NCBI RefSeq assembly: GCF_004138295.1
Contig: NZ_SCFM01000013.1
Location: 62,001 to 126,000 of the forward strand
Reading direction: 5' to 3'
Length of the DNA: 64,000 bases
From: Ectobacillus funiculus
GTDB taxonomy: Bacteria; Bacillota; Bacilli; Bacillales; Bacillaceae_G
In this document: positions 2-28,741 of the stretch, one piece after another
Position numbering within the stretch: the first letter of the stretch is position 1
How the letters are laid out: each line of letters begins with the position of its first letter
Notes under the pieces: generated by a model
Databases searched by the model: none
Told to the model about the DNA's origin: nothing
Seen by the model: only the letters and a program-made list of their open reading frames with translations
Translations under genes and position numbers: made by a program

Positions 2-1441
2 ATTCCATTATACGGTGATTGTGGCGCCTTCAGCTACATTAACAAGGACAAACCGCCTTACCAAACAGAAGAAATACTCCAGTATTATAGCGATTTCCAG
101 TTTGATATCGGTGTATCAATTGACCACCTTGTAATTGGACATATTGCTCAAGATGTAGCTAAAAGAAATTATCGGTTCGACTTAACACTAGAGAATGCAA
201 AAGACTTTCTCGTTAAACATCAGTCAGGAGGGTACCAGTTCAAACCATCTGGCATCGCTCAAGGATGGGATCCATCCTCTTATCATGAAGCTGTCAAACA
301 GTTGGTTGAGATGGGATATCGACATATTTCTCTCGGAGGACTCGCCTATGCAAAATCTGAACAGATTCTTGATGTATTAATAGAAGTTGCGCCTCTATTG
401 CCAGAATATATGGAAGTACACTTATTTGGAGCGGCACGACTGGAATTACTCCAAACGTATTATCAACTAGGTGTTACTTCATTTGATTCTACAGCTTTCC
501 TTAAGAAGGCATGGGGGGGGGCTTCTGGTGGAAATTATTTTACTAAGGATCAAGAAAAATACGCTGCTGTCCGGATTCCACAAGCTAATACAAGTAAAAA
601 TCCAAAGTTGAAGGAACTAGTGGCTAGAGACATCGGTGAGATATCTTACTTTGAAGACATGGAAAAAAAGGCTCTTAACTATCTGCGAAGCTATGCTGAC
701 GGAAATGTTAGCATGGAAGAAACAATTGAAGCTGTTATAAGATACGATTCCCATTATGAAACCTTGAAGGAGTACAAAAAGCTTTATAAGGGGCAAGTAG
801 AAAAAAGAAATAAACATATTGTTGCTAACCTTAAGGTTACATCACAAGAGCTAGAAAACATTGCATGGAAAATTGCTAAAGGTACGACAAGTAAAGCGGC
901 AGTTAACACTGCCGAAACAATTTTAGCTAAATCTGCAACTTGGACACCCTCCAAAATATTGGGATGGGTAGAGGAACAAATTGAGAAACAAATGCGTACT
1001 ATTCATAAAAAAGAAGAATTATCACAATTTGAAGAATATTCCTGGGGAGATGTAAGTTTTCATAAATTCCTTTTTGAAAATATTGCTGTTGTCGAAAAGT
1101 ATATAGAAGATCCATTTCTACGGATTATGAAGGACATAGCAGCACTAGAAGTAGAAGTAATTGAGAAGGAAGCCCTGACACTTCTTTCATCTACACTAAA
1201 GGAATACTTTACAGAAAATTACGAAACAGTATGTGCTAATAATAAACTTAGACCTCACTATTTACGAGTACTAGCGGATCAGCCTTGGAAGAAATGTAAT
1301 TGTGAGATTTGTAGGGGTATTGGAGTAGAGGTTATCATTTTCCGTGGTAATAATCGTAATCGGAGACGGGGCTTTCATAATACTCATGTTTTTTATGAAC
1401 AGTTTAAAGAAATTATGCAAAACACTAAAGTTACGCAATAG
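2..1441 (+). CDS. dpdA: DpdA, TGT-like DNA 7-deazaguanine transglycosylase (5' end outside window)
   Basis: The frame is open from base 2, so the start codon lies upstream; 479 residues are visible. DpdA exchanges a guanine in DNA for preQ0, the first step of 7-deazaguanine DNA modification. TGT landmarks are visible: GDCGAFSY near the start corresponds to the TGT DSGGFQ active-site strand, SIDHLVI to the following Asp strand, LGGLAY to the substrate loop, and FDSTAFLKKAW (about 495-527) supplies the predicted nucleophilic Asp. A helical insert of about 250 residues separates this from the C-terminal zinc site, CNCEIC with a following His (bases about 1296-1395). This long architecture matches DpdA rather than tRNA TGT, which has no such insert. 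A run of nine G lies just after the nucleophile motif. A terminator follows, so it is transcribed separately from the next TGT-like gene. Family assignment is firm; its activity is inferred. Confidence 0.88.
   Translation: MPLYGDCGAFSYINKDKPPYQTEEILQYYSDFQFDIGVSIDHLVIGHIAQDVAKRNYRFDLTLENAKDFLVKHQSGGYQFKPSGIAQGWDPSSYHEAVKQLVEMGYRHISLGGLAYAKSEQILDVLIEVAPLLPEYMEVHLFGAARLELLQTYYQLGVTSFDSTAFLKKAWGGASGGNYFTKDQEKYAAVRIPQANTSKNPKLKELVARDIGEISYFEDMEKKALNYLRSYADGNVSMEETIEAVIRYDSHYETLKEYKKLYKGQVEKRNKHIVANLKVTSQELENIAWKIAKGTTSKAAVNTAETILAKSATWTPSKILGWVEEQIEKQMRTIHKKEELSQFEEYSWGDVSFHKFLFENIAVVEKYIEDPFLRIMKDIAALEVEVIEKEALTLLSSTLKEYFTENYETVCANNKLRPHYLRVLADQPWKKCNCEICRGIGVEVIIFRGNNRNRRRGFHNTHVFYEQFKEIMQNTKVTQ
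513..521 (+). repeat. G9 homopolymer inside dpdA
   Basis: Nine consecutive G residues encode part of Trp-Gly-Gly-Ala directly after the predicted catalytic Asp segment. A tract of this length is unexpected in AT-rich coding sequence. Slippage by one base would truncate the protein before its zinc site. The frame is intact in this copy. Confidence 0.9.
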
Positions 1442-1450
1442 TCTTCCATC

Positions 1451-1489
1451 AAAAGGGTTGTTGAAATCTACTTTCAACAACCCTTTTTC
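1451..1489 (+). terminator. Rho-independent terminator after dpdA
   Basis: A perfect 16-bp stem (1451-1466 with 1472-1487) encloses a 5-nt loop and ends in a T run. It begins 10 nt after the dpdA stop codon. It separates dpdA from the second TGT operon. Confidence 0.9.
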
Positions 1490-1527
1490 TATGCAATAGA
1501 AACTATATTAAGGAAAAGACAACTTTC

Positions 1528-1653
1528 ATGAAAATAAGAACTCCCGCTTTAATTGTACTAACGGATAAAAAGAATTATTCAATCGAACTCGCCAGAGAAA
1601 AAAAGGGATTTTTGTTTGGTGAATTGAAAATAATGGAATACTGGTTATGTTAA
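1528..1653 (+). CDS. possible 41-residue small protein
   Basis: An ATG-initiated frame between the dpdA terminator and the next operon encodes 41 residues ending in WLC. Its composition looks protein-like, with a hydrophobic N-terminal stretch and a charged middle. Only a weak AAGGA lies about 13 nt upstream, and the frame overlaps the proposed promoter of the next gene. No family is recognised; it may be a remnant or chance. Confidence 0.2.
   Translation: MKIRTPALIVLTDKKNYSIELAREKKGFLFGELKIMEYWLC
1624..1651 (+). promoter_or_regulatory. candidate sigma-A promoter for the second TGT operon
   Basis: TTGAAA (1624-1629) and TATGTT (1646-1651) are separated by 16 bp, followed by a strong GGAAGGAGG ribosome binding site before the ATG at 1677. 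The -10 box is imperfect. Position after a terminator supports an independent promoter. Confidence 0.4.
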
Positions 1654-1676
1654 CTTAGTTTGGAAGGAGGTTAGGG

Positions 1677-2603
1677 ATGGACTTTTATGTTAGTTGGTCG
1701 CATAGTGATGCTCTATACTGTGAATACTTTACTGATTGTCCAATTCTTATATCTGCGGTCCCTGATAATAAGAATTCCTTGCGAAAGTTTAAAAAACTAC
1801 CGTCTAGATTAATGGTAGATTCAGGGGCTGTTTACTATGTACGAAAAAGAATTCCCTATACAGTAGAAGAGATTTTTGAAAGACAACTTCTTACTGCAAT
1901 GCCAGTTTTACATCAATGCCCAGTTACCTTTGTACATGTAGACGAACCTTTGTTAAATAAAGTAACACTAGTAGAAAAATATGGAGCAATTGAGAGAACA
2001 CTTATTAATGCTTATGAGTACATGAACTTGGTGAGGGCACAAAATATAGGTAAGGATTCTAATGTGTCTATTTTGGGTGTGATTCAAGGTTATGACTTCC
2101 CGAGTATTCAATATAGTATCTTTGAACTTAAGAGGTTAGGATACCATAAATTTGGTATTGGATCATTGTTGGGAAGAAGTATGTCCGAACAGATACAATT
2201 TATTAGTTGGGCAGCGGAAATTGTTGGCGCAAAAAACCTCCATGTGTTTGGCGTAACTGGGGTTCCTCAAATTCAAGCAATGAGTCGTATGGGGATTTCT
2301 TCATTTGATTCTAGCAGACCAACAAAAATGGCGATATACCATCAAGTATTTTATAGTAAGCCCCTTCGTACCTATGTTATTGAGGGATCAAGGATAGATA
2401 AAAGGTACCAGAAAATTTCAGCTCCCCTTTACTGCAATTGCCCAGTGTGCCAAGAGAATCCAATGGACCTCATGAACCTTACTCACCGAAAGTATACTAA
2501 GGTACGTTCTATTCATAATTATTATCATTTCCTGAAGACAGTACAACCGTTCTTACGAAAGGAGGATGACGTAAATGCTATTTCAAATGTGTTACGGTCC
2601 TGA
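1677..2603 (+). CDS. second, short TGT-like (DpdA-related) protein
   Basis: The 308-residue protein has the full set of TGT landmarks in order: VDSGAVYY with Asp48 (TGT DSGGFQ strand), HVDE with Asp89, GVIQGYD at about 134, FGIGSLLGR at about 159, the predicted nucleophile in FDSSRPTKMA (Asp211), and a zinc site CNCPVC (Cys253, 255, 258) with His280. It lacks the long helical insert of the upstream DpdA and is shorter than bacterial tRNA TGT (about 370-380). It starts an operon with a G-like and an H-like gene, which points to DNA rather than tRNA as substrate. It could modify a second base or site, or pair with DpdA as a heterodimer; the sequence does not decide. A strong ribosome binding site fixes the start. 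Confidence 0.8.
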   Translation: MDFYVSWSHSDALYCEYFTDCPILISAVPDNKNSLRKFKKLPSRLMVDSGAVYYVRKRIPYTVEEIFERQLLTAMPVLHQCPVTFVHVDEPLLNKVTLVEKYGAIERTLINAYEYMNLVRAQNIGKDSNVSILGVIQGYDFPSIQYSIFELKRLGYHKFGIGSLLGRSMSEQIQFISWAAEIVGAKNLHVFGVTGVPQIQAMSRMGISSFDSSRPTKMAIYHQVFYSKPLRTYVIEGSRIDKRYQKISAPLYCNCPVCQENPMDLMNLTHRKYTKVRSIHNYYHFLKTVQPFLRKEDDVNAISNVLRS

Positions 2604-3309
2604 GTTAGAAAGTATTCATACGATTGTTTGCCGACAACCAGGTATAACAATACTGGAACTGACCGATCTGTTCCAGTATAAACGAGAGGGAGACATTACC
2701 TCTCTCATAGAGGGGGCTATCACCTTTTTAAAAGAGGTAAACTTTTTGAGGGTAGAAGAGAAACGAATTTATCCTCAGCAGAATCGTTGGGATGTTATTA
2801 CCCTGCTAAAACAACTGAATAACATCATGCAAAACGAAAAAGAGACTTCCTTCAATTATCTATTTTCAACTATGTATTATGAATTGTTTGTAAAGCCAGA
2901 TCGGATGTATGTACAAGATGTATACTATGAAACTAATGCAATGTTTGCAAGTCAACCAGTTGGACAAGAAAAGGTAAATGCATGGAAGAGAGTAATGGAG
3001 TTTTTAGGATTGGGGTACAGAGCGTACGGAGGTTTTTATGCACTCCCGCATCCAGCATTACTTTTAAAAATTATAGAAAGTAAAAAGGGTTGGGAAGGAC
3101 CAGTACAGGTATTTTGTCAGGAACATCTCTCCTCTATTATTCCTTGTGAATATCAAGGGAAAGTTTACCGAGGAGTGTTATATGGACTACAAGGTCTATA
3201 CCGTCAGGGAGTAGTCGATTTACAATATAGACAAGACTTGCCATATGCACACTATGAAGGAACAAATGGAAGATGGAATTGGCTTCAAGTTAAGGAGGAA
3301 GTTTCATGA
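2575..3309 (+). CDS. DpdG-like winged-helix protein
   Basis: The 244-residue protein starts inside the end of the TGT-like gene (29-bp overlap), with AAAGGAGG upstream of its ATG. Its layout resembles the DpdG encoded at 13,543: an N-terminal helical or winged-helix segment, then a central Trp followed by FLGLGYR (compare YFGMGH in the other copy), then a hydrophobic P-containing strand. Similarity is at pattern level and needs a profile search. No catalytic motif is visible. It precedes an ATPase gene just as dpdG precedes dpdH, so a role as DNA-binding or adaptor partner of that ATPase is inferred. It would be the second copy of this family in the window. Confidence 0.5.
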   Translation: MLFQMCYGPELESIHTIVCRQPGITILELTDLFQYKREGDITSLIEGAITFLKEVNFLRVEEKRIYPQQNRWDVITLLKQLNNIMQNEKETSFNYLFSTMYYELFVKPDRMYVQDVYYETNAMFASQPVGQEKVNAWKRVMEFLGLGYRAYGGFYALPHPALLLKIIESKKGWEGPVQVFCQEHLSSIIPCEYQGKVYRGVLYGLQGLYRQGVVDLQYRQDLPYAHYEGTNGRWNWLQVKEEVS

Positions 3310-6047
3310 TACCTTGTTTAGATGTGAAGACGTTGAAGATGTTGAAGGGAACAGCAGATGAACGGTATGAATTTTCTAGGGAACTGTTTCGAGAGACTCA
3401 CTATCCACAAGTGATGAGTGAATTTTACAAGCAAAAACTTTTAAGGCAGTGGAAAGAGAAGGAATTACTTGCTGAATTACAGGATGCCCCGGAATCAACA
3501 GGAAATAGAGTATACATTATATTTGGTTCTACAGGCTCAGGGAAGTCTGAACTACTTTGCTGGTTAAGAGACCAATGGATTATGCACAAGGTTACCAGAC
3601 CGGTTATTCGTATCTCAAGGAGTGAACTGAATCCACAATTATTAATCAAAAAATGTTATAATGCGCTGAATATTCAGGCAGAGGACCTACAGTTGGATGA
3701 ACAAAAATGGGATATCCTGCTGAAAAAACCTATCACTATTGTCAATCAAATAATTTGGACGGCTTTATCTGAGGTGATGGAATGCGATGAGGAGATTGTG
3801 CCAGTTGCTCTACTCTTAAGACCAGTTGTGGAGCGCAATATCATGGATTTTGCCAAACAGGTGCGGAAAAAGAAAATTAGTAAACCTCTTCAAATCATTA
3901 CGGAAGGGGAGTTTAAAAAGGTTCAACAATGTACCACAATCCCAGTAGAGATTAAGTTTAAAACATTGCAGGATGCCCTTGCAAAAAAGCTAGAACATTT
4001 CTTGTTTCAAGGTCATAGCCTTTCACAACTTCTAAAACAATTATCTCATTATCTAAAACAACAAGGAATTAGACCCCTTTTATTGATTGATGACTTAGTG
4101 CAGTCTGTAAATTTATATGCTGCGGAAATTTTGGACCATTTTATTACACTCGAAGAGGGAAATTGGGACGTTGTTGTTGGACTAACTCCCGGTGTAGTTA
4201 ATGCAACAGATTACAATAAAGAGTTCAATCAGAGGGTACAGCATTTGGATACCATAGATGATAGGGTAAAAAAGCTTTGGCTTTCCGATGAAGCGGGGGA
4301 AACGTTCTTCTCCTTATCTAAAGAACAAGCACACGAATATACTGAAAAGTATCTGAATGCACTAAAAAAAGCCAATGGTTATACTTGTTCAGTAGAATGT
4401 CCTTACTATCAAGGATGTAAAGAACTTCTTATAGGAGAATCTAATACTAAAATCTTGCCGTTTAATAGAGCTCTCATTAGTAGGATATATGATGGTATCC
4501 CGGCAGGTAAAGGTGTTTTACGCTACATGGTTTTACATATGCGAGAGATCTTGAAGAGCTTATCTTCTAAAAAAATCAAGGATGTACAAAGAATTCAAGG
4601 CTATATTCAGCGTGACAGTTTTGTAAAATATGATTCCCCTGTTATAAAGCTACTAGGGGAAATGTTTGCAGATTCGAATGATGATTTTGTGACTCTTCCC
4701 GGCCAGATGCTACAATCCTTCGGTTTAGATGCTCTAGATGTTACACTACCTCTTATGAAGTTTACGGAAGAGGTCGTTCCTATAGAGGAACAAGTGGCTA
4801 TAAAAAAGGAGGTTATTCCAGCTCATTTTCTCGATTGGGTAGAGGGGCGACAAGTCAACGAAAATGTGCTTGATCCCTTGAAAAAGAGTACAGCTCAGAT
4901 TGTTCATGAAGTGACAAAAGGAACAAACATATCTAGACCTTACACACCTAGATATGTAAGAGCAGGATCTACTTTACAAAGAACAGAGGTACAGCAGCGA
5001 TATAAGTATCCTATTGTTTTAGGGGAATCTAGAGAGCCTACTATAGTAATTCAAAAAGATTTAAGCAATAAGTATTTACTAAATTTTCATGAACAAAAAC
5101 CACAGCGGAAGGCAGATCTATTTTCCCGAAGTACCCAAGATTCTTTTATTGCAGATTGGATTTATACCACAGAGTTTTTGAAGGAGGATTGGAGATGTGA
5201 GATAGAGCAACTATTGCAGTTAAGTTTACCCAAGTTTGCACATGGCTTAAAAACATATATGGATATTTGGTGGACTGTAGGTCAAGCAGACTGGGGAAAA
5301 GATTTTCAACCTCTGATATCCGATGAGATATACGAATTGATTGAACACTTGTATCTCGACTGGTTCTCTCTAAGAGATAATATGATCGACTATGCGAGTA
5401 TTGAACTCATGCCAGATGTAAATGAATTCGAAATATGGTTAAAGACTTTTAAACCTCAACCTGCATTAAGTAAGTACAGTATCGGAGAATATAACCTAGA
5501 TAAGTTCCTTTACTTATTGCATGAGACTGTATTAGAGATGAAGAAAAAAGCAGTTGCCTTCATTACTGAGAGAATGAAACTATACAGAGAATTAGTACCT
5601 TTTATTCATAGCGTTAATATGGAGTACGGTAAAAGGGTAGAAGATTTCCTAGATACCTGGGTTGTACAGCCGGAAAACATTCAACATATTCTGGAGTTCC
5701 ATGATATTGAAAATTGGTTCAATCAGTGCGATCAAGGTAGTGGTTTAGTACAAAACTGGTATGAAAAAAAAGAATTTCTAACTAATACAAAACAATTTGC
5801 ACAGTACCTTTCACAAGAAGAAGTACTATTACAAGATAAAGAAGACTTAGAAAGATTGCTAAGAGAAACATTGCAAGTAAGACCACAAGTTCAAAGACAG
5901 CTTACAAAACTTTTGGTAAATGGGGAGACGATTTTACCGCGTCATCAATGGAAAGGAATCGTTAGAGATTTGGAGCAAATCCATCCAGATATATTAAAAG
6001 ATCTTATTACCGTAACATTAAAGTTAAAGCCGAAAATTGTCTCGTGA
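3306..6047 (+). CDS. DpdH-like P-loop ATPase
   Basis: The 913-residue protein begins with an ATGA overlap on the preceding gene and has AAGGAGG upstream. Walker A is GSTGSGKS (residues 74-81) and Walker B is LLLIDD (about 258-263). After the ATPase core comes a Cys group (C-x3-C-x5-C, about residues 360-370) and the segment ILPFNRALISRIYDG. That segment matches in position and pattern IFPFTKAALWNFYKN of the DpdH encoded at 14,362, so the two look like diverged paralogues. Long helical C-terminal regions follow. In Salmonella, DpdA needs the ATPase DpdB to insert preQ0; this ATPase sits in the TGT operon and could play that role, or it could be a second restriction ATPase. Both readings are inference. 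Confidence 0.6.
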   Translation: MIPCLDVKTLKMLKGTADERYEFSRELFRETHYPQVMSEFYKQKLLRQWKEKELLAELQDAPESTGNRVYIIFGSTGSGKSELLCWLRDQWIMHKVTRPVIRISRSELNPQLLIKKCYNALNIQAEDLQLDEQKWDILLKKPITIVNQIIWTALSEVMECDEEIVPVALLLRPVVERNIMDFAKQVRKKKISKPLQIITEGEFKKVQQCTTIPVEIKFKTLQDALAKKLEHFLFQGHSLSQLLKQLSHYLKQQGIRPLLLIDDLVQSVNLYAAEILDHFITLEEGNWDVVVGLTPGVVNATDYNKEFNQRVQHLDTIDDRVKKLWLSDEAGETFFSLSKEQAHEYTEKYLNALKKANGYTCSVECPYYQGCKELLIGESNTKILPFNRALISRIYDGIPAGKGVLRYMVLHMREILKSLSSKKIKDVQRIQGYIQRDSFVKYDSPVIKLLGEMFADSNDDFVTLPGQMLQSFGLDALDVTLPLMKFTEEVVPIEEQVAIKKEVIPAHFLDWVEGRQVNENVLDPLKKSTAQIVHEVTKGTNISRPYTPRYVRAGSTLQRTEVQQRYKYPIVLGESREPTIVIQKDLSNKYLLNFHEQKPQRKADLFSRSTQDSFIADWIYTTEFLKEDWRCEIEQLLQLSLPKFAHGLKTYMDIWWTVGQADWGKDFQPLISDEIYELIEHLYLDWFSLRDNMIDYASIELMPDVNEFEIWLKTFKPQPALSKYSIGEYNLDKFLYLLHETVLEMKKKAVAFITERMKLYRELVPFIHSVNMEYGKRVEDFLDTWVVQPENIQHILEFHDIENWFNQCDQGSGLVQNWYEKKEFLTNTKQFAQYLSQEEVLLQDKEDLERLLRETLQVRPQVQRQLTKLLVNGETILPRHQWKGIVRDLEQIHPDILKDLITVTLKLKPKIVS

Positions 6048-6518
6048 AAATTAGACATTATAAAAAAGATAATGTATTGGCCTCGAAGTGAACAGTTAAA
6101 GCGATTTTCAATTCGATGATTACGACAGACGAAGAATATCAAATACTATTCTAAATCAAAGCTTTTATCTTTAATTAATCTTTAAAGATGAAAGCTTGAT
6201 CAATCTAAAGAGGTAGATATTTCGGGTGAGATTAATCATATGAGAGAATTGGGAAGCAACAAGTATATATAAGTGAATTGCAATATATCCTTGATCGATT
6301 AGAAGTTTCACTGTACTCAATAGGTCCATGAGAGATATCGATTGCCGAGGACTTTTTTAACTAAGGGAGATCTCCAGAATGTCTCTTAGATAATCAAGTG
6401 CTCGAGAAAAAATACAATTAGATATTGGAAATATAATTCAGTTAGAGTTTTGTTGAAAGTAAACCAGCAATCTTATAAAGTAGAAGTTGCCATTAAAATA
6501 GGAGAATGGAGGATTCGG
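6048..6518. other. intergenic region with AT-rich hairpin, no supported gene
   Basis: A near-perfect 14-bp inverted repeat (6161-6174 with 6182-6195, one mismatch, 7-nt loop) lies about 110 nt after the ATPase stop. It has no downstream T run, so it is a weak terminator candidate at best. The rest contains short broken frames that may be gene remnants. I saw no preQ1 riboswitch upstream of the transporter gene. Confidence 0.5.
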
Positions 6519-7055
6519 ATGAGAATTATTTTTTACCTTACCGTGATTGTGCTAGCTAACTTTGTAACAGCTGCATTTTCACCTTTACATTTAGGAGCAT
6601 TCATTGTTCCGATGGGAACGTTATTCATTGGTATAACCTTTATCTTACGCGATTTAGTACAAAATCAGCACGGGCGAGTTAAGACATATATGATAATTGG
6701 TATTGCCTTAATTTTGTCAGCAGTTGTTTCATATTTGCATGGAGACACTTTATTAATTGTACTTGCTTCCGCATTGTCCTTTGCAATCTCGGAGACAACT
6801 GATACAGAGATATATTCACGACTAAAATTACCTATGAGTTGGCGTGTTTTCTACAGTGGTCTTGTGGGAGGATGTTTAGATTCCGCAATCTTTGTAGTTA
6901 TTGGGTTAAGTCCTCTTGGAGCGAACTTCTTACCATGGGCTGCAGTACCTGCTGCAATAGTTGGACAAGTAATAGTTAAAACTATTATCCAGGGAATTGG
7001 AGCAATTGTTCTAAGTCGTATTCCGAAGTTACAGAAAGAAGAGGCATTAGGATAA
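6519..7055 (+). CDS. VUT/YhhQ-family queuosine precursor transporter
   Basis: The 178-residue protein is almost entirely hydrophobic, with about six membrane segments. It has VUT (DUF165, YhhQ-type) features: an N-terminal TM starting RIIFYLT, the polar segment ITFILRDLVQN, a central acidic SETTDTEIYSRL, and a C-terminal TM ending in a basic tail. YhhQ-family proteins import preQ0 and preQ1. The start at 6519 follows GGAGAATGGAGG; an upstream in-frame ATG at 6450 lacks such a site and would add a soluble extension. It sits between the two TGT genes and the dpdE-D block, so it probably supplies preQ0 to the DNA modification enzymes by uptake. This fits the absence of preQ0 synthesis genes here. 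Confidence 0.85.
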   Translation: MRIIFYLTVIVLANFVTAAFSPLHLGAFIVPMGTLFIGITFILRDLVQNQHGRVKTYMIIGIALILSAVVSYLHGDTLLIVLASALSFAISETTDTEIYSRLKLPMSWRVFYSGLVGGCLDSAIFVVIGLSPLGANFLPWAAVPAAIVGQVIVKTIIQGIGAIVLSRIPKLQKEEALG

Positions 7056-7563: not shown

Positions 7564-10500
7564 ATGGAAAAATACCACCTAGGTATGTATGTCAGATGTA
7601 ATATAGATAAAGAATACCCAGATATACCCAGAAGGTTTGCGATGGGTCAGATTGATCAGGTTTATTCTCAAAGTGAAGAAATTATGGTTAATTTTTATAG
7701 TTTGGATAAGCAGTTTGATTACTTTTCACTTTACAAAGTTCCTAAGCGAGAACTGTTTCATATTACTCAGGTAGAGCGTATTAAAATTCTTCCTAAGACA
7801 AAAGTTAAAGTGAAAATTTATAATTATGAAGGGCAAGTTGTTGACTTTTCCCATGAAGACAACAAAGGAGAATACTGGTATCATATTGAGTTAACTGTTG
7901 GTAAAGAGAAGACAGTTAGTGTGTTTTCAGAATCACAACTTACGGTTTCTTTTAATCGGGCAGATGTTAATCCTAAGAAACAACTTTTAAATTATGAGCT
8001 AAATAATCCAACATGGTACTTAAAGCGTGAAGTTGTAACTAATTCCTTACATACGTTAAAGAATGCAACATTTGGATTTGATACATTAGTTGGTTCTCGT
8101 GTTTATTTATTAAAACACCAAGTAGATACGATTATTCGAGCAATCTCTGAGAGACCATGCCGCTTTATGTTAGCTGATGAAGTAGGACTTGGAAAAACTA
8201 TTGAAGCGATTGTTATTATGAAAGGCCTACAAAAACGATCAGGAGATATGCGGATTCTGATTGTTACACCAGAATCATTACTATATCAATGGAAAAACGA
8301 GTTATCCTATAAATTCTGGACGGATTTTCAAGTGCATAACGAAGAATCGATTAGTAACAATAATCCATTTGTGCTATTCCCGCTAGAAAAGGTAAATACA
8401 TTGGTTGGTGATAGTATTATGGAAGCCAATTGGGATTTAGTCATCATTGATGAGACTCACCGCTTGCTGTTCTTAGATGATGACTACAAGAAGATTCTTC
8501 GGGTAAGCCAACGAGTTGAAAACCTTTTGCTATTAAGCGCGACTCCTATTCAATCTCGTCCAAACGAATTCTTAAAATTGGTTCGTTTACTAGAACCTAC
8601 TAAATATTTAGAGATGTCTGAGGACCATTTTGATGAATTGTTGGAAAAGCAATCTTACATTCGTCGTAGAGTTTATAAAATGATGCAAAATCTTCCTGAA
8701 TATATTGAAGAGGAACATGCGGAAGACTACATTGATAATTTTGAGAAGATTTCTAGAAAATTGAAAGACGATAATTTTGATGGAATAATCGACAATATTG
8801 ATCCTAATTCAGACGATCAAGGATTAGACCAAGTAAAATTTGCTCTTGCCTATTTGGCAGAAAATTATCAAATTGAACGAAAGGTTATCCGTCATCGGCG
8901 TAAAGAATTAGAACAACGACAGCAGTTACCGAAACGATTAAAAGAAGTAATGTATTATCAAATGCAAGGCTCAGATATGCTTTATTATGAGTCTGAGGTA
9001 AACGATACACTTATGACCTATTTAGACTTTATTAATAGAGAAGGGTATGAAAGTGGTCTAACGGGGGCTTATCATCGCTTATTCCTCTCAAGTATGTATA
9101 GTTCACCTTGGGCTCTTGAGTCTATGATTTTAAAACGACTTGATGTCTTAAAAAAACGTGGCCTAACTGATAAACATGAACATTTTAAAGCATTAATAAA
9201 CCTTCCTACTTCTGAGAATGAGGAGACCTTTCTAAATGATTTATTAGAAATGAATAAAAGGTGGAAGAAGGCTGCAGAATCAGAGTTTGAAAATATGGAG
9301 GCCCTCTACAACGACCCGGATTTAATTAATGGAAGGTTAATGCACGCTTTAGATTATATAATCGAAAACACGAAAAATGAAAAGGTCGTTATCTTTTCCC
9401 AATGGAAAGAAACGATTGTTCAATTTGAGAGCTTACTTGTTTCTCGCTTCGGTGAAGACACTGTAAGAAGTTTCTATTATGGTAAAAGTGATGAGGAACT
9501 ACAGCAGGCAGTAGATGATTTCCAAAGTAATTCTTCATGTCGCTTCATGGTTTGTGATCCACTTGGTGGGGAAGGTCGCAACTTTCAAATGGCTGATTTT
9601 TTAGTACACCTTGACTTACCATGGTCTCCTACGGACTTAGAACAAAGAATTGGGCGTCTTGATCGTTTAAATCGTGAAAAAGATGTTCTATCTGTAGTGT
9701 TCTGTTCGGAAGAAACAGTTGAAGAAGATTTATATCGATTATGGGACGAAGGATTACATGTATTTAATGAGTCCTTAAGTGGTATTGAAATCGCTTTATA
9801 TGAAATTCAAAACTTAATTTCAGATGCAATTACTACCAATCTACAAACTGGTCTAAGAAACAAATTAGAGGAAATTAATTTGAGTCTTCACAAGATGCGA
9901 GAAAAAGTTGAAGAAGAACGTTTCTTCGATGTTGCAAGACAACTAGATCAATCTGTAGAACAACAATTGTTACATTTGATAGATAAGTTTGATGAAAATG
10001 ATGGCGGGGTCTTAGCTTCAACAATGATGGCGTGGGCTTCCATGTGTGGTTTACATGGAATAACTGTTGAGCAAGGTACAGCCATTATGTATTCCAGAAA
10101 ATCATTGAACTTTAAGTCAATGAATAATTCTCAATATTTTGTACCAGATTTGGAAGAGGCGCGCAAAAGATCTTTAAGATCAAATGAATTACGTGGGACA
10201 TTTATTCGAAAAAATGCCATTACACGCGAAGATTTAATGTTCTTTGCCCCTGGAGATTTATTATTTGATTCGATTGTTAATAATGCTTATGAACTTTCAG
10301 CAGGACGTTCGACAGCACTTGAAATTAGGATAGATGGTGTTGATTGGGAAGGAATTGTTTTTACGTGGTCGATTTCATTGAACCCAAGACCACTTATTGA
10401 AATGGGAGAATCATTGGATCATCTTTATCATGCTCAAGGTTACCTTCCACTTCAACATTTTAAGACAATTGAAAAAGTTAACGGAGATGATATTGATGAA

Positions 10501-10884
10501 AGGAAAATCTCATCTTTACTCTCTAGAGATCTTCCTGGCAAATATTTAAGACATTTAGGCAAGAGAAGTGGAGGATCATCTAAGCAATTCATAGAAGAAT
10601 ATCCTAGAGATATTTGGGAAAATATAATTGAAATTAGTTATGAAAATAGTAGAGGTAAAGTAAAAGAGTTTTTCCAATCTGAAGTTCAAGTGGACCAAGC
10701 ACGCGAAGATTTTAAGCGAAAAATAAATTCATTAAAAGCCTCAAACCTTTATTATGGACACAACGATGATGAACAAATTAACTATTTATCGTCCATATTT
10801 GATGCTGTACAAAAGGGAATTGAAAACCCAGTTTTCCGACTAGAATCTATAGCATTTATAAGGTTGGTGAATGTGAGTGGATAA
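7564..10884 (+). CDS. dpdE: DpdE, SNF2-family helicase of the Dpd restriction system
   Basis: The 1106-residue SF2 protein has an N-terminal beta-rich region (about 1-150) followed by a SNF2-type core: motif I ADEVGLGKT (204-212), motif II DETH (296-299), motif III SAT (325-327) and motif VI QRIGRLDR (about 694-701). The insert between the two RecA lobes is unusually large. A C-terminal region of about 350 residues follows. DpdD-K are needed for restriction of unmodified DNA in Salmonella Montevideo, and DpdE is the SNF2-like member. It heads the dpdE-F-G-H-I-J-K-D block and overlaps dpdF by 8 bp. AAGGTG lies upstream of the ATG. It presumably translocates on or remodels DNA; the exact role is not known to me. 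Confidence 0.92.
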   Translation: MEKYHLGMYVRCNIDKEYPDIPRRFAMGQIDQVYSQSEEIMVNFYSLDKQFDYFSLYKVPKRELFHITQVERIKILPKTKVKVKIYNYEGQVVDFSHEDNKGEYWYHIELTVGKEKTVSVFSESQLTVSFNRADVNPKKQLLNYELNNPTWYLKREVVTNSLHTLKNATFGFDTLVGSRVYLLKHQVDTIIRAISERPCRFMLADEVGLGKTIEAIVIMKGLQKRSGDMRILIVTPESLLYQWKNELSYKFWTDFQVHNEESISNNNPFVLFPLEKVNTLVGDSIMEANWDLVIIDETHRLLFLDDDYKKILRVSQRVENLLLLSATPIQSRPNEFLKLVRLLEPTKYLEMSEDHFDELLEKQSYIRRRVYKMMQNLPEYIEEEHAEDYIDNFEKISRKLKDDNFDGIIDNIDPNSDDQGLDQVKFALAYLAENYQIERKVIRHRRKELEQRQQLPKRLKEVMYYQMQGSDMLYYESEVNDTLMTYLDFINREGYESGLTGAYHRLFLSSMYSSPWALESMILKRLDVLKKRGLTDKHEHFKALINLPTSENEETFLNDLLEMNKRWKKAAESEFENMEALYNDPDLINGRLMHALDYIIENTKNEKVVIFSQWKETIVQFESLLVSRFGEDTVRSFYYGKSDEELQQAVDDFQSNSSCRFMVCDPLGGEGRNFQMADFLVHLDLPWSPTDLEQRIGRLDRLNREKDVLSVVFCSEETVEEDLYRLWDEGLHVFNESLSGIEIALYEIQNLISDAITTNLQTGLRNKLEEINLSLHKMREKVEEERFFDVARQLDQSVEQQLLHLIDKFDENDGGVLASTMMAWASMCGLHGITVEQGTAIMYSRKSLNFKSMNNSQYFVPDLEEARKRSLRSNELRGTFIRKNAITREDLMFFAPGDLLFDSIVNNAYELSAGRSTALEIRIDGVDWEGIVFTWSISLNPRPLIEMGESLDHLYHAQGYLPLQHFKTIEKVNGDDIDERKISSLLSRDLPGKYLRHLGKRSGGSSKQFIEEYPRDIWENIIEISYENSRGKVKEFFQSEVQVDQAREDFKRKINSLKASNLYYGHNDDEQINYLSSIFDAVQKGIENPVFRLESIAFIRLVNVSG

Positions 10885-13465
10885 AGTGTATGACTTAACT
10901 CAGAAGGTCTTACTTGAAGAAATAGATGTAGTAGATGGAATTGAAACACTAAACGATCTCTTAAAAGAGGTTAACATTAGATTTCGCTCTAAATCGAGTT
11001 GTGTAAAACGTTTATTTCGTTGTGTCAAAGGCATTAAAGCCTATCCTATTCAATCATCTATTTTAGACCTAGCAGGGCATTTACGCCAGTTTATCCTGAT
11101 GTTTCAATCGAAGGTTCGTGTTTCTGAAAACTTACGTGAGCAATTAATGAGCATTAGTGAAGAGGCCGGTTTGTATGTTAGGTTAAACGGAGAAGTAGAT
11201 ATCCATTCAGACTTTCCTGTTAAAATTCCTCACCTTTTGAAAATGCAGGAGATTTATCAGTTACCTGAAAGAAGAATGGTGACCCCACCAATTGGAGATG
11301 GAATCCTGTATAATATGGCAAAGTTTCCGAATTACCGCTCTGCAGCTCAAAAGATCATGGTCAAGTCATGTATGGACATGGAAGAGGGAGAAACGTTGCT
11401 CTCTTGTTTACCAACAGGCGGGGGGAAAAGTTTGGTTTTCTTACTACCATCCTTCTTTGAAACAGAAGGTGGTTCACTTTTAGGATCAATAAGAGAAACA
11501 GTAGGAACTACTATTGTAGTTGTTCCTACTGTTTCTCTAGCAATCGATCAAAAAATGTCTGCAAGGAAATTATTTAAAAATGCACTTGAAGAAAAATATC
11601 AACCACAAGCTTATTACGGTGACTTAGCATCTGAGGAAAAGAAAATTATTTTTGAAGGATTACAAGATGGTTCGCTTCCAATCCTTTTTACTTCTCCAGA
11701 GTCAATTGTAAATGGAGCATTAGCTAAAGCGTTAATAAATGCCGCTCACAAGGGAAATATTACGAGATTTGTAATAGATGAGGCTCATATTGTCCTAGAT
11801 TGGGGTAGCAACTTTAGAACTGATTTTCAATTATTGACTGTTTTTCAAAAGAAATTGATCAAAGCAACAAAAGGAAAGTTAAAAACAATCTTATTATCCG
11901 CTACTCTATCGGATGCAGCTACTAGCTTGTTAAAACAACTATTTTGTCATAATGACAGATATACTGAAATACGTGGCGATGAACTCCGTCTTGAACCAAC
12001 CTATTTTATTGATGAAAGTGAATCAGTAGATGAACGATTTAACAAAATAACAAAGATGTTACCATTTATGCCACGGCCGATTATCATTTATGTGTCAAAG
12101 AAGGAAGACACAAAAATGTGGAGAGAAAAGTTAGTTGAAAAGGGCTATCAGAGTGTAGCTGTTTTTAATGGAGATACGGTTGATTCTGAAAGAGAGCGTA
12201 TTATTCGTGAATGGAATAATGATGAACTTGATATCATTGTTGCTACGTCAGCATTTGGAATGGGAGTGGATAAAGGCGATATTCGAACCGTGATCCACTG
12301 TTGTCTTCCTGAAAGTGTGAATCGTTTTTATCAAGAAGTTGGAAGAGGTGGACGAGACGGATTTGCTTCTATTAGTCTATTAAGTTATGTATATGATAAG
12401 GACGTAGCTGTTCAGGATAATTTAACATCGAAAGCTGTTTTAACAACTGAAATGGTATGGAAACGTTGGGAAGCGATGTATGTACGGAGAGAGTCTACTG
12501 CCGTTGCGGATGAATTTTGGCTTCATATGAATTCCCAACATGATGGATTAACCGGTCCTTCTGGGAAAAGTAATGGAGCTTGGAATGAAGCAGTTTGTTT
12601 GATGCTTGCTAGACATGGTGTCATTGAAATTGTTGATACTTTGCTTGAAAGTGGAGAAATCACTAGAAAATTACTTGTAAAAATCGTAAACTTTTCAGTT
12701 GTAAATGATGAGGAGAGGTTAAAGACTACACTCGAACCAGATCGGGAAAAGGAAAGAGAAAGAGTAAACAAAGATCAACGTCAAATGAGAAAACTTGTTA
12801 GAAAAAGTAATGTTGAGTGCTTCTCTGAGTTTTTTGTTGATATGTATCCATATGCAGTAGTAGCATGCGGGGGGTGTCCAGCTTGCTTTGAAACTAGAAA
12901 TGACATTTCGTACTACCCTCCCAAATTACGAATCCCAGATAGTCATCACGACGTTCCAGTAAAAGCAGATTTTACTGGAAGTCTAGAAACTCAGTCAGCT
13001 GGATTTCAAGAACTGATATTAAAAACGAATCAAAACGAATGGAACCAGGTTAGTCTTTTAGAGCTGGTTGAACAGTTGATCCTTAGTAACATTTCTACAA
13101 TTGTACTACCTGAAGGACAAAGGATCAATTTAATAGATTTGGTGAAGGAATCCCCTTCAGGATTTGGTTCTGCTAATTATACATTCTTAACGAGTAAGGA
13201 GTTAACGAACTATCCAATAGAATTTTTAAAGGTCCCAATAGCCATTTTTTATCAAGAGGATGAGCAGTTAAATGATCAACTCTACCAATGGTCAAGAAGA
13301 TTCTTGGAAATACATCCGTTTGGAAAAATCGTTCATGTAACAATCCCAGATATTTATATACTGTCAGAAGGGAAAACTCTAGACAGTTTAATTGATTATA
13401 TGACAATTGAACTAACTGATTTCCTTGAAAGACAAGGTGATATGTTTACACTCGAAATGTTTTAA
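10877..13465 (+). CDS. dpdF: DpdF, RecQ-like helicase of the Dpd restriction system
   Basis: The 862-residue protein starts at a GTG that overlaps the end of dpdE. RecQ-like motifs are clear: motif I PTGGGKS (179-185), motif II DEAH (301-304), LSATL (III), ATSAFGMGVDKGD (V) and QEVGRGGRDG (VI, from 486). The RecQ-type link between motif II and an aromatic-rich loop (VLDWGSNFRTDF) is present. A Cys cluster CGGCPAC (about 664-670) may bind zinc. It is larger than housekeeping RecQ, with a distinct N-terminal domain of about 150 residues and a C-terminal domain of about 190. It likely unwinds DNA during restriction of DNA lacking 7-deazaguanine. Confidence 0.92.
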   Translation: MDKVYDLTQKVLLEEIDVVDGIETLNDLLKEVNIRFRSKSSCVKRLFRCVKGIKAYPIQSSILDLAGHLRQFILMFQSKVRVSENLREQLMSISEEAGLYVRLNGEVDIHSDFPVKIPHLLKMQEIYQLPERRMVTPPIGDGILYNMAKFPNYRSAAQKIMVKSCMDMEEGETLLSCLPTGGGKSLVFLLPSFFETEGGSLLGSIRETVGTTIVVVPTVSLAIDQKMSARKLFKNALEEKYQPQAYYGDLASEEKKIIFEGLQDGSLPILFTSPESIVNGALAKALINAAHKGNITRFVIDEAHIVLDWGSNFRTDFQLLTVFQKKLIKATKGKLKTILLSATLSDAATSLLKQLFCHNDRYTEIRGDELRLEPTYFIDESESVDERFNKITKMLPFMPRPIIIYVSKKEDTKMWREKLVEKGYQSVAVFNGDTVDSERERIIREWNNDELDIIVATSAFGMGVDKGDIRTVIHCCLPESVNRFYQEVGRGGRDGFASISLLSYVYDKDVAVQDNLTSKAVLTTEMVWKRWEAMYVRRESTAVADEFWLHMNSQHDGLTGPSGKSNGAWNEAVCLMLARHGVIEIVDTLLESGEITRKLLVKIVNFSVVNDEERLKTTLEPDREKERERVNKDQRQMRKLVRKSNVECFSEFFVDMYPYAVVACGGCPACFETRNDISYYPPKLRIPDSHHDVPVKADFTGSLETQSAGFQELILKTNQNEWNQVSLLELVEQLILSNISTIVLPEGQRINLIDLVKESPSGFGSANYTFLTSKELTNYPIEFLKVPIAIFYQEDEQLNDQLYQWSRRFLEIHPFGKIVHVTIPDIYILSEGKTLDSLIDYMTIELTDFLERQGDMFTLEMF

Positions 13466-13542: not shown

Positions 13543-14358
13543 ATGCCATTTGATAATAGTTTGAAAAATATACAAACTCCAGGCAGAGTTCACGCACTGT
13601 GTAAGCTTTTATTACTAGAATCTTACAGTCAAGAGAAATTGATGGAGTTGCTCCAACCCGACTCAGACAAAACACAAGCAAAAGATGTTTTTAAGTTAGC
13701 ACGAAATGGCGGATTGGTAAGTTTAGATGAGAATAAAAAAGTACATCTACAAGTTCCAAAAAGTGAAGTGCTTGACAGTAAAAGATTTGCACATTATGTA
13801 GCCGGATTAGCATTTGAAAATAAAGATTTTATCTTTGGGCGATTTAGTGCATGGGTCATGACTAGGGGAGAAAAAGTCCTTACTGAGACAAGAGATGAAC
13901 TTGCTGAACGTTTTTTTAATGAGGTATCCAGGAAGTACACATCATCACAAGAATTTAACTCAACTAATATTATAGGTTGGATGACATGGGCGAATTACTT
14001 TGGTATGGGTCATACGTTAAACAGTAAGTTTGTTGTTAATCCTGCTAATAGAATTCGAAATGAACTAGAGTTTGATCAAGAATTACCTAGAGGAGAATTT
14101 ATCCGTGTCCAGGAATTTATGGACTGGATTGTGAAAAGATGTCCAGAATTAGACGGCGGAACAGTAAATCTTGAATTTAATGACCAGTTTAGTAACCAAC
14201 AACTCTCGTTTGCGTTTTCACTAGCACTTAGAACATTACATGACTTACAGATCATTATTTTACAGAATACGAGAGACGTAAAAAATATATGGTATTTGCA
14301 TGAGGTGCAGACTCATGAAATTCCAAATCAAGTAACCGATATTATGGTGAAAGGTTGA
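13543..14358 (+). CDS. dpdG: DpdG, Dpd restriction component
   Basis: The 271-residue protein follows dpdF by 77 bp and starts after GGGAGGTTG. The N-terminal part looks like a helical or winged-helix unit. The middle contains WMTWANYFGMGH followed by VVNPANRI, and the C-terminal third is alpha-helical. No catalytic motif is seen. Assignment rests on its place between dpdF and dpdH, its length and this layout. It lies 3 bp from dpdH and likely acts with that ATPase. A second gene of similar layout lies at 2575-3309. Confidence 0.75.
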   Translation: MPFDNSLKNIQTPGRVHALCKLLLLESYSQEKLMELLQPDSDKTQAKDVFKLARNGGLVSLDENKKVHLQVPKSEVLDSKRFAHYVAGLAFENKDFIFGRFSAWVMTRGEKVLTETRDELAERFFNEVSRKYTSSQEFNSTNIIGWMTWANYFGMGHTLNSKFVVNPANRIRNELEFDQELPRGEFIRVQEFMDWIVKRCPELDGGTVNLEFNDQFSNQQLSFAFSLALRTLHDLQIIILQNTRDVKNIWYLHEVQTHEIPNQVTDIMVKG

Positions 14359-17595: not shown

Positions 17596-18238
17596 AATTT
17601 CAAAAGTCCGTAAGACAGTTGGAGAATATAAGCAACTTGATCAAAAACTCCTGGAAGTAAAAAGAGTTAACTCCTTTTTTCAATTTACTAAAGACGAATT
17701 GAATAAATGTAAAACCATCCTTAGAAGTTATTCTGCACTTCATGCGATGGATGAGGATGCTTTCCCTAAAAGGAATATGTCGTTTGTGATTAGGCAGTTA
17801 GAAGCATTAAGTAAGGATAGTTTGGAGAATTACAATAGGGATGAGGTCTTAGCCTTCTCTCGACCACTAAAAAAACTGGATGCAGACTTAAAAATAGGTT
17901 GGATGCACTATGTCCGTAATAAAAATAACGACATCATCGGATTACTAGACCAGATGCAAAGCATTGTAAACAATCCAAATGAAATAAAGCAATTAATTGT
18001 GGACTTGAAACAGTTTGAGAGTAAGTGGCCTGTTACTTCAACTACTGTAAATCGATACCATGATCAACTTGCAAATGCGAAAAAAGTCATTTCAGACATG
18101 CAAGCAAGTAAAGGTATCCAAGAATTTATCGGAAAAGTCGCGACTAATCATGCAACATTAGACGATTTAACAGAAGAAGTAATCTTGTGGCTCCGTAAAC
18201 AGCAATTAATGAACAAACTAGTAATAAAATTCAAGTAA
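17582..18238 (+). CDS. dpdI: DpdI, small helical Dpd component
   Basis: The protein has 218 residues if started at 17,582, where AAAGGAG sits at good spacing; an in-frame ATG at 17,564 has no such site. It is predicted to be almost wholly alpha-helical and shows no enzymatic motif. It overlaps the end of dpdH by 14 bp and is followed by dpdJ after 14 bp, so translation is coupled. Naming is by position between dpdH and dpdJ. A structural or adaptor role is likely. Confidence 0.68.
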   Translation: MLLNKISKVRKTVGEYKQLDQKLLEVKRVNSFFQFTKDELNKCKTILRSYSALHAMDEDAFPKRNMSFVIRQLEALSKDSLENYNRDEVLAFSRPLKKLDADLKIGWMHYVRNKNNDIIGLLDQMQSIVNNPNEIKQLIVDLKQFESKWPVTSTTVNRYHDQLANAKKVISDMQASKGIQEFIGKVATNHATLDDLTEEVILWLRKQQLMNKLVIKFK

Positions 18239-28704: not shown

Positions 28705-28741
28705 ATTCATGAAAGATTGGAAAGGGGGTTCTATTATTACT

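What the first reader, a model, noticed from the sequence alone, without database searches (positions are those of the whole stretch)
2..7055. Second Dpd-like module: two TGT proteins with their own G/H pair
Seen: dpdA, then a short complete TGT-like gene (Asp48, Asp211, CxCx2C..H) translationally coupled to a DpdG-like and a DpdH-like ATPase gene. Known: DpdA acts with the ATPase DpdB to put preQ0 into DNA, while DpdD-K restrict. Inference: the TGT2-G'-H' operon is either an alternative modification machine in which the H-like ATPase replaces DpdB, or a second 7-deazaguanine system with a different mark or site. I do not recognise this arrangement as described.
Basis: partly seen in the sequence, partly recalled or inferred. 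Interest (0 to 1): 0.85.

Follow-up and report, generated by a model that had tools for sequence, protein, structure and literature searches.

The report
Dpd system with two DNA transglycosylases
This bacterium carries a variant of a known DNA-marking defence island in which a second base-swapping enzyme, with its own DNA-binding and ATPase partners, is present and the usual helper protein DpdB is not found; the same set recurs in distant bacteria and, in a parallel form, in salt-loving archaea.

Summary
Window 1677-6047 encodes a short complete transglycosylase (TGT2), a tandem winged-helix protein (G') and an ORC/Cdc6-like ATPase (H'), overlapping head to tail after dpdA and before a dpdE-D cluster. 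H' is related to DpdH (profile E 1.6e-17) and G' to DpdG (E 7e-6), but both fail the curated family tests. TGT2's closest solved relative is a DNA-guanine transglycosylase; it keeps catalytic and zinc residues plus a His and a Ser typical of DpdA, not of tRNA enzymes; the genome has a separate tRNA Tgt. 18 bacterial loci (one broken) carry the set beside dpdA, and 7 haloarchaeal plasmid loci carry a parallel TGT2-G-ATPase set. No DpdB-like gene was found in 28 of 28 two-TGT loci. Four TGT2 genomes lack detectable dpdD, dpdF and dpdJ; in three of them a UvrD/AddB-like pair sits beside the set. So TGT2-G'-H' follows dpdA, not the canonical restriction operon. Most likely it stands in for DpdB in a two-transglycosylase DNA-modification machine; a second mark or site is not excluded. 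The DpdB exclusion is confounded with phylogeny and no function was tested. New variant of a known kind.

The parts
2..1441 (+). 3' part of dpdA (whole gene 868 aa, starts about 1165 bases before the window; N-terminal DUF6884 domain fused to a TGT domain)
   Evidence: NF041059 DpdA 444.8 bits on the whole protein, cut-off 200; Pfam DUF6884 E 5.1e-10 and TGT E 9.6e-13
1677..2603 (+). TGT2: second, short DNA-type transglycosylase
   Evidence: Pfam TGT E 5.8e-13; best solved relative DNA-guanine transglycosylase 7ui4 E 4.1e-20; active-site and zinc residues kept
2575..3309 (+). G': tandem winged-helix protein related to DpdG
   Evidence: hhalign to DpdG E 7.2e-6, probability 84, 203 columns; AlphaFold2 model pLDDT 79; N-terminal winged helix Z about 10
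3306..6047 (+). H': ORC/Cdc6-like P-loop ATPase related to DpdH (Walker A 74-81, Walker B about 258-263)
   Evidence: hhalign to DpdH E 1.6e-17, 417 columns; model pLDDT 70.9, pTM 0.48, Z 13.9 to Cdc6/Orc1 2qby_B and 13.4 to BrxC 9zll_D; motifs
6450..7055 (+). queuosine-precursor (YhhQ/VUT) transporter-like gene; start uncertain
   Evidence: Pfam Vut_1 E 1.5e-12
7564..10884 (+). dpdE
   Evidence: NF041062 392 bits, cut-off 500
10877..13465 (+). dpdF
   Evidence: NF041063 582.8 bits, cut-off 550
13543..14358 (+). dpdG (canonical copy)
   Evidence: NF041064 52.2 bits, cut-off 80
14362..17595 (+). dpdH (canonical copy)
   Evidence: NF041065 280.2 bits, cut-off 450
17564..18238 (+). dpdI
   Evidence: NF041066 E 9.1e-6, 25.8 bits, cut-off 150
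18253..22719 (+). dpdJ
   Evidence: NF041067 1264 bits, cut-off 800
22712..23218 (+). dpdK
   Evidence: NF041068 122 bits, cut-off 100
23194..25458 (+). dpdD
   Evidence: NF041061 512 bits, cut-off 300
28709..31636 (+). AddB-like protein with a weak PD-(D/E)xK match; close relatives sit beside the TGT2 core in three genomes without detectable dpdD/F/J
   Evidence: TIGR02773 E 2.7e-7, far below its cut-off, PDDEXK_1 E 0.008; phmmer E <= 3e-210 to G1075, G1181, G1194
31633..33882 (+). UvrD-like helicase, neighbour of the AddB-like gene
   Evidence: Pfam UvrD-helicase E 1.5e-54; phmmer E <= 3e-246 to G1075, G1181, G1194

Best explanation
TGT2-G'-H' is the part of a two-transglycosylase DNA-modification machine that does the job DpdB does in the canonical Dpd system. 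DpdA (with its fused DpdC-like DUF6884 domain) and TGT2 are both complete base-exchange enzymes and work on the same host DNA, probably as a hetero-complex or on the two halves or strands of one site. G' binds DNA through tandem winged helices, and H', an ORC/Cdc6/BrxC-like ATPase, loads or moves the complex on DNA in an ATP-dependent way. preQ0 comes from the Que pathway and the transporter. The resulting dPreQ0 (or amido-deazaguanine after the DUF6884 step) marks self. The restriction side is separate and exchangeable: dpdE-D here, perhaps a UvrD/AddB-like pair elsewhere. Shown: sequence relations, fold class of the models, gene association, no DpdB-like gene detected at the loci. Inferred: the substrate, the complex, the ATP step, the mark, the effector role of UvrD/AddB.
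For: TGT2 is DNA-type: its profile's best match in the PDB is DNA-guanine transglycosylase 7ui4 (E 4.1e-20), ahead of archaeosine TGT (5.6e-15) and tRNA TGTs (2.2e-10). His189 in 18 of 18 bacterial and 7 of 7 halo TGT2 and 33 of 33 DpdA against Tyr in 12 of 12 tRNA Tgt; Ser212 in 18 of 18 and 7 of 7 (30 of 33 DpdA) against Cys in 12 of 12. The genome has its own tRNA Tgt (C24, 618.8 bits). Active site kept in bacterial TGT2: Asp89, Asp211 and four zinc ligands 18 of 18, Asp48 17 of 18. Linkage: dpdA lies 0.04-5.1 kb from the second TGT in 27 of 28 two-TGT loci; in the 28th (G468) a dpdA fragment overlaps it. All 12 genomes over the DpdA cut-off in samples of 400 genomes of the phylum of G407 (3) and 392 of the order of G402 (9) have a second TGT within about 5 kb, 11 of this type and 1 (G939) of another; 5 of the 12 (G402, G404, G405, G407, G1153) were already known through TGT2, so 7 of 7 are fresh. 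No DpdB: 0 of 28 two-TGT loci against 4 of 8 other DpdA loci fetched, two of these 8 being fragments; of 25 DpdA plasmids, 11 have a second TGT, 12 a DpdB/DGQHR gene, 2 neither, 0 seen with both (Fisher p 2e-5). Core without restriction genes: G1075, G1181, G1194 and G730 keep DpdA, TGT2, G', H' but show no DpdD (E <= 1e-5), no DpdJ (E <= 1e-20) and only RecQ-level or no DpdF.
Against: No biochemistry. The DpdB exclusion is confounded with phylogeny: only 2 independent contrasts on supported branches of the DpdA tree, sign test median p 1. Phage DpdA is active in E. coli in a paper whose main text never names DpdB (PMC6884629, passages), and DpdB is said to be dispensable in some clusters (PMC12839542, passages), so lack of DpdB need not call for a substitute. 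DpdA loci with neither partner exist: Acetobacter within 6 kb, G023 within 20 kb, and Methylorubrum by listings only. G653 has G' and H' relatives and a dpdA fragment but no TGT2 detected (its stretch holds 200 masked bases). In G1153 and G1005 a J-K-D set follows H' directly, which could tie H' to restriction. In 6 of 18 loci (G407, G735, G730, G164, Deinococcus, G468) TGT2 is not co-directional with dpdA or with G'-H'. In Deinococcus, G468 and G730 the H' protein scores better against my DpdH profile than against my H' profile.
Confidence: 0.55

Rival explanations
1. TGT2-G'-H' is a second, separate DNA-modification system that shares the preQ0 supply with DpdA but writes a different mark or a different site; G'-H' direct TGT2 as its own specificity module.
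For: Both TGTs keep complete active sites, unlike a catalytic/structural pair; TGT2 has its own G/H-type pair; its base pocket differs from DpdA (Gly-Ser in 17 of 18 bacterial TGT2, Gly-Gly in 32 of 33 DpdA); two Paenibacillales genomes carry two J-K-D sets, one behind TGT2-G'-H'.
Against: TGT2-based searches found no bacterial- or halo-type TGT2 without dpdA near it (Haloarcula by listings 49 and 61 only; a second Natronococcus copy not located); an independent system should sometimes travel alone. Cyanobacterial-type TGTs beside helicases without dpdA in view exist on three Deinococcus plasmids, but they are another group.
Confidence: 0.22
2. TGT2-G'-H' belongs to the restriction or sensing side: a variant DpdG-DpdH pair in which TGT2 acts as a reader of unmodified or phage-modified DNA.
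For: G' and H' are relatives of DpdG and DpdH, which are counted to the restriction operon (PMC11888242, passages); the H' model resembles BrxC; a J-K-D set follows H' in G1153 and G1005.
Against: TGT2-G'-H' persists with no detectable dpdD/F/J in G1075, G1181, G1194, G730, while DpdH, mostly with DpdG, is present beside dpdE-D in the same islands as G'-H'; the TGT2 active site is kept.
Confidence: 0.13
3. TGT2 modifies RNA or a protein rather than DNA, as tRNA Tgt does, or like Cap10 of type IV CBASS, a TGT-family enzyme that binds a protein end conjugated to a 7-deazaguanine.
For: TGT-family enzymes have been reshaped for protein work (PMC11996544, abstract).
Against: Closest solved relative is a DNA enzyme; DpdA-type His/Ser signature; separate tRNA Tgt in the genome; linkage to dpdA. 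Cap10 itself was not compared.
Confidence: 0.06
4. DpdA alone modifies DNA and TGT2-G'-H' is a passenger or a decaying duplicate.
For: Phage DpdA is active in E. coli in a paper that does not name DpdB (PMC6884629, passages); one TGT2 locus (G468) looks broken and G653 has lost or never had TGT2.
Against: Active-site residues conserved across bacterial and halo TGT2, overlapping or abutting TGT2, G' and H' genes in all 13 loci measured, and a second TGT in 12 of 12 sampled dpdA genomes counting the other TGT type.
Confidence: 0.04

Closest known systems
Canonical Dpd system (dpdA-C modification, dpdD-K restriction; PMC11888242, passages)
   Same: dpdA, dpdE-K and dpdD all present in the window; DUF6884 domain, which that paper links to DpdC; preQ0-type transporter gene
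   Different: No DpdB detected; a second DNA-type TGT with its own winged-helix and ATPase partners; DUF6884 fused to DpdA; four genomes with this core lack detectable dpdD/F/J
BREX-Related Capture (BRC) systems (PMC12839542, passages)
   Same: TGT with an ATPase proposed to stand in for DpdB; BrxC-like fold of the H' model
   Different: BRC is built on PglZ, DUF6079, HerA/FtsK and DUF4007. My Pfam scans showed no PglZ, DUF6079 or DUF4007 in the 16 proteins given; a HerA-domain match to the H' P-loop (DUF87, E 0.046) is below its cut-off
BRIGADE of halophilic archaea (PMC12458937, passages)
   Same: The haloarchaeal plasmid loci with the parallel TGT2-G-ATPase set resemble these Dpd/ARMADA hybrids (large DEAD/DEAH helicases; queC/D/E in several; a PLD-domain gene in Natronococcus)
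   Different: The main text, searched for TGT and transglycosylase, has neither word; the supplement was not seen
Phage DpdA2 (Vibrio phage nt-1; PMC6884629, passages)
   Same: A second DpdA-like family
   Different: That family is said to lack the conserved His; TGT2 rows all have a His at the column where tRNA Tgt has Tyr (that this is the same His is my inference). The phage sequence was not fetched
Eukaryotic queuine TGT (QTRT1/QTRT2; recalled)
   Same: Two TGT-fold proteins working as one enzyme (recalled)
   Different: There one partner is catalytically dead (recalled); here both keep the active site

Membership tests
DpdA (NF041059) | TGT2 over the curated cut-off of 200 bits | tested here: not met
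   70.8 bits, E 9.1e-20
DpdA (NF041059) | TGT active-site Asp residues and CxCxxC...H zinc site in TGT2 | tested here: met
   17-18 of 18 bacterial rows
DpdA (NF041059) | exchange of guanine for preQ0 in DNA | not testable with these tools
   needs LC-MS
DpdH (NF041065) | H' over the curated cut-off of 450 bits | tested here: not met
   24.6 bits, E 7.9e-6, residues 22-106; the window's own dpdH also misses it (280.2 bits)
DpdH (NF041065) | homology over the ATPase half | tested here: met
   hhalign E 1.6e-17 over 417 columns
DpdG (NF041064) | G' over the curated cut-off of 80 bits | tested here: not met
   no match reported at E <= 1; the window's own dpdG scores 52.2
DpdG (NF041064) | co-linear homology | tested here: met
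   hhalign probability 84, E 7.2e-6 over 203 columns; moderate
DpdB (NF041060) | presence in the genome or at the locus | tested here: not met
   no match in G000 at E <= 0.001; none at the locus with three DpdB/DGQHR queries. The family model also misses the annotated DGQHR gene of Scytonema, so it is narrow; DGQHR genes elsewhere in the genome were not searched
Dpd system | dpdA plus restriction genes | tested here: met
tRNA-guanine transglycosylase (TIGR00430) | TGT2 over cut-off 306.75 bits | tested here: not met
   33.9 bits; the genome's tRNA Tgt is elsewhere with 618.8 bits
BRC system | PglZ, DUF6079, HerA/FtsK, DUF4007 beside TGT | tested here: inconclusive
   not over cut-off in Pfam scans of 16 proteins (DUF87 at E 0.046 on H'); not every ORF of the window was scanned
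BRIGADE | ARMADA-like YprA helicase | not tested
   helicase clade of the haloarchaeal loci was not analysed
Type IV CBASS Cap10 | TGT remodelled for a protein end, beside a CD-NTase | not tested
   Cap10 sequence not fetched

The most novel reading that the evidence does not exclude
DNA 7-deazaguanine modification can be run by a pair of catalytically complete transglycosylases driven by an ORC/BrxC-like ATPase and a winged-helix specificity protein. This DpdB-free engine arose or spread across Bacillota, Chloroflexota, Deinococcota and, in a parallel form, haloarchaea, and it is coupled to different effectors (dpdE-D, or a UvrD/AddB-like nuclease). The two enzymes would write two marks, or the two strands of one asymmetric site.
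Probability: 0.35. Interest if true: 0.85.

Novelty: new variant of a known kind. Interest (0 to 1): 0.72.

Why it matters
To my knowledge (recalled; the core Dpd papers were not available) it is open how DpdA picks its DNA sites and what DpdB uses ATP for. A natural set in which DpdB is not found while a second transglycosylase plus a BrxC/ORC-type ATPase is present gives a direct way to ask which part sets specificity and which uses ATP. It also suggests that the modification core and the restriction effector of Dpd islands are exchangeable, and that searches which require dpdA plus dpdB (as in PMC11888242, passages) miss this branch. In a small Paenibacillales locus (G1194) the stretch from dpdA to queE is about 10 kb, so it can be cloned and tested.

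Tried and rejected
Housekeeping tRNA enzyme: argued against. Viral origin: no TGT2 match in phage records or IMG/VR at the sensitivity of those tools; the halo TGT2 gives only weak matches (best E 1e-5) to archaeal viruses and large phages. Homology of haloarchaeal G and ATPase with bacterial G'-H': not shown by profile comparison beyond the P-loop; both H types look BrxC/ORC-like by separate routes (Pfam BrxC_BrxD E 6.5e-18 for the one halo protein scanned; fold of the H' model). A W-containing motif shared by G', DpdG and halo G was seen by eye only. Phylogeny-corrected test of DpdB exclusion: too few contrasts. Foldseek matches of G' as a whole were weak (best E 0.004, SelB winged helices; SspB TM 0.42). 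The rows for H' cover mainly its ATPase half; its C-terminal half remains unassigned and the model is middling (pTM 0.48); the tool warns that helical models can reach such Z values by a common arrangement alone. hypX, a 262-272 aa protein between dpdA and TGT2 in 10 loci: no family over cut-off (one member scanned), absent in the window.

Caveats on counts. The plasmid tally of 25 uses listings for Haloarcula and Methylorubrum, which I did not fetch, and for eight of the DpdB-bearing records; one search lists 40 of 45 records and one search lists 60 of 877, so a DGQHR gene or a cyanobacterial-type TGT in an unfetched record could have been missed. The 28 two-TGT loci were searched over 9-78 kb each. 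That the phylum of G407 is Chloroflexota and that the window's class is Bacilli are inferred from record names (Chloroheliaceae, Paenibacillus). That 7ui4 is DpdA is recalled; the entry's name is DNA-guanine transglycosylase. Residue roles in TGT are recalled.

Errors and dropped rows. The tree holds one wrong row (phageDpdA_MT835580 is not the DpdA frame of that phage), and the G468 TGT2 row starts with a non-homologous stretch; branches among the TGT2 types are unresolved, so one origin of all TGT2 is not claimed. G686 was left out of that tree, and the phage and STSV2 rows were left out of the residue counts. The DpdC_halo profile was contaminated by fused DpdA proteins, so haloarchaeal DpdA are labelled DpdC_halo there, and the halo gaps were partly measured from DpdC (remeasured). 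L068 duplicates L006, and L041-L047 duplicate L071-L077; each is counted once. Papers PMC10164549, PMC6207457, PMC10966956 and PMC4801273 (core Dpd literature) are not held, so whether they describe a second TGT is unknown. Novelty rests on searches, on passages of PMC12839542, PMC12458937, PMC11888242 and PMC6884629, and on the abstract of PMC11996544.
Full report
What is there. The window starts inside dpdA. The genome record (G000:C35) supplies the rest: dpdA encodes 868 aa, with an N-terminal DUF6884 domain (E 5.1e-10), which PMC11888242 (passages) links to DpdC, fused to a DpdA-type TGT. Downstream, in one direction, come TGT2 (308 aa), G' (244 aa) and H' (913 aa), overlapping by 29 and 4 nt. 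Then follow a queuosine-precursor-transporter-like gene and dpdE, F, G, H, I, J, K, D. No DpdB was found at the locus with three DpdB/DGQHR queries or in the genome with NF041060, a narrow model that also misses the annotated DGQHR gene of Scytonema. The genome has a tRNA Tgt on another contig and QueC on the same contig 31 kb past the window's end.

What the three proteins are. TGT2 matches Pfam TGT (E 5.8e-13) and DpdA weakly (70.8 bits, cut-off 200). A profile of 13 TGT2 sequences finds the solved DNA-guanine transglycosylase 7ui4 first (E 4.1e-20), before archaeosine TGT (5.6e-15) and tRNA TGT (2.2e-10). In an alignment of TGT2, DpdA and tRNA Tgt rows, the catalytic and base-binding Asp residues, the Gln of the QG motif in bacterial rows (His in halo rows) and the four zinc ligands are kept in the bacterial and halo TGT2; DpdA and TGT2 share His where 12 of 12 tRNA Tgt have Tyr, and mostly Ser where 12 of 12 have Cys. 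Residue roles are recalled from tRNA TGT. G' gives no DpdG match in single-sequence scans; a profile of 15 aligns along its length with DpdG (E 7.2e-6, probability 84); its model (pLDDT 79) is a series of winged-helix-like units, of which only the N-terminal one has clear matches. H' aligns with DpdH over 417 columns (E 1.6e-17), has Walker motifs, and its ATPase half resembles Cdc6/Orc1 (Z 13.9, 250 residues, rmsd 4.1) and BrxC (Z 13.4, 255 residues, rmsd 5.0).

Where else it occurs. In 398 genomes of the class, 3 carry TGT2 (378-491 bits; the next-best matches are 78 bits or less). A genome-contig scan gave 7 loci, two DpdA surveys more, and plasmids the rest. I annotated 18 distinct bacterial loci: DpdA in 18 of 18 (a fragment in G468, whose TGT2 also looks broken), H' or an H'/DpdH-like protein in 18 of 18 (in Deinococcus, G468 and G730 the DpdH profile scores better), G' in 16 of 18 by profile, the other two, Deinococcus and G468, being matched by the G730 G' at E 3e-23 and 2e-31. 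A further locus, G653, has G' and H' relatives and a dpdA fragment but no TGT2 detected. Haloarchaeal plasmids carry the order DpdA - (DpdC) - TGT2 - G-like - BrxC/D-annotated ATPase in 7 fetched loci, in Halobaculum with 5 kb of other genes in between; an eighth record was seen in listing. A third kind of second TGT, lacking the zinc ligands, sits near dpdA in Nostoc, Picosynechococcus and G939, in the first two between DEAD helicases.

DpdB. None of 28 two-TGT loci has a DpdB-like gene by profile search; of 8 other DpdA loci fetched (two only fragments), 4 have one. Among 25 plasmid records with DpdA at E <= 1e-15, 11 have a second TGT, 12 a DpdB or DGQHR gene, 2 neither and none was seen with both (Fisher p 2e-5; several records by listings only). 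The records are related: on the DpdA tree only two independent contrasts lie on supported branches and the sign test has no power. Within cyanobacteria, closely related DpdA go with DGQHR genes (Scytonema, Allocoleopsis) or with a second TGT (Nostoc, Picosynechococcus).

Restriction genes. Of 22 genomes or records searched, DpdD is over the cut-off in 12 and DpdJ in 12. G1075, G1181, G1194 and G730 have TGT2-G'-H' with DpdA and neither gene; DpdF is at RecQ level (188-192 bits, cut-off 550) or absent there, as in control genomes. In G1075, G1181 and G1194 the core is followed by an AddB-like and a UvrD-like gene, close relatives of window 28709-33882. G1153 and G1005 have two J-K-D sets, one directly behind TGT2-G'-H' and one behind E-F-G-H-I.

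Reading. The constant partner of TGT2-G'-H' in these loci is DpdA, often with preQ0 genes or a transporter, not the canonical restriction genes, while a separate DpdH (and mostly DpdG) is present where dpdE-D is. I therefore place TGT2-G'-H' on the modification side and take it as the functional stand-in for DpdB: two transglycosylases, one winged-helix specificity factor and one ATPase. A second mark or site is the main rival; a sensor for restriction comes next. The related idea that an ATPase stands in for DpdB beside a TGT has been published for BRC systems (PMC12839542, passages), but for a different gene set. In the searches listed I found no description of a second TGT in Dpd loci; the core Dpd papers were not available.

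Limits. Everything rests on sequence, gene order, and fold models, that of H' being of middling confidence. TGT2, G' and H' do not meet the curated tests for DpdA, DpdG or DpdH; they are relatives. The window's own dpdE, G, H and I also fall below the curated cut-offs, so these are strict.

Noticed in passing
window 28709-33882; L067:12507-17614; L069:2466-7629; L070:13598-18824: An AddB-like protein with a weak PD-(D/E)xK match and a UvrD helicase lie next to the DpdA-TGT2 core in three genomes without detectable dpdD/F/J, and behind dpdD in the window: a possible alternative effector.
   Followed up: partly
L063:637-4209; L085:19054-20000 with L077:1-2598; L052:3-3354; L060:13111-16202; L055:1778-4869; L010:15428-18672: A UvrD-like helicase beside a smaller 304-564 aa protein (one family by phmmer, E 3e-6 to 3e-145) recurs beside dpdA in six more loci, one of them with DpdB and one with a DGQHR gene.
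   Followed up: partly
L049:7933-13080, L050:3832-8990, L100:8974-11861, L104:9001-11885: Short TGT proteins without the zinc ligands sit directly beside helicase or hypothetical genes, near dpdA in two cyanobacteria and with no dpdA annotated nearby on Deinococcus plasmids.
   Followed up: partly
L068 with L079 (G1153), L080 with L066 (G1005): Two J-K-D restriction sets in one island, one behind TGT2-G'-H', one behind E-F-G-H-I.
   Followed up: partly
L006:11088-11885 and relatives in 9 further loci: A 262-272 aa protein of no assigned family lies between dpdA and TGT2 in Paenibacillus-type loci; absent in the window.
   Followed up: partly
window about 833-1256 (in dpdA): The window's DpdA and that of Bacillus sp. 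165 have an insert of about 140 residues before the zinc domain, absent in the five other DpdA aligned.
   Followed up: no
window 4386-4418 (H' residues 361-371): Three cysteines C-x3-C-P-x4-C in H', invariant in the 15 sequences of A8; possibly a metal site.
   Followed up: no
L052:4883-8392: Rhizobium-type loci carry two DpdB copies flanking dpdA; two DpdB places occur in 9 of 17 plasmid records matched.
   Followed up: no
L004:11406-12566: A tyrosine-recombinase-like integrase ORF (by eye) ends about 270 bases before dpdA, hinting at an integrated island.
   Followed up: no
L008:7949-8608, L056:18192-18848, L054:19021-19671: A csa3 (CRISPR-associated CARF regulator) gene lies beside three haloarchaeal loci.
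   Followed up: no
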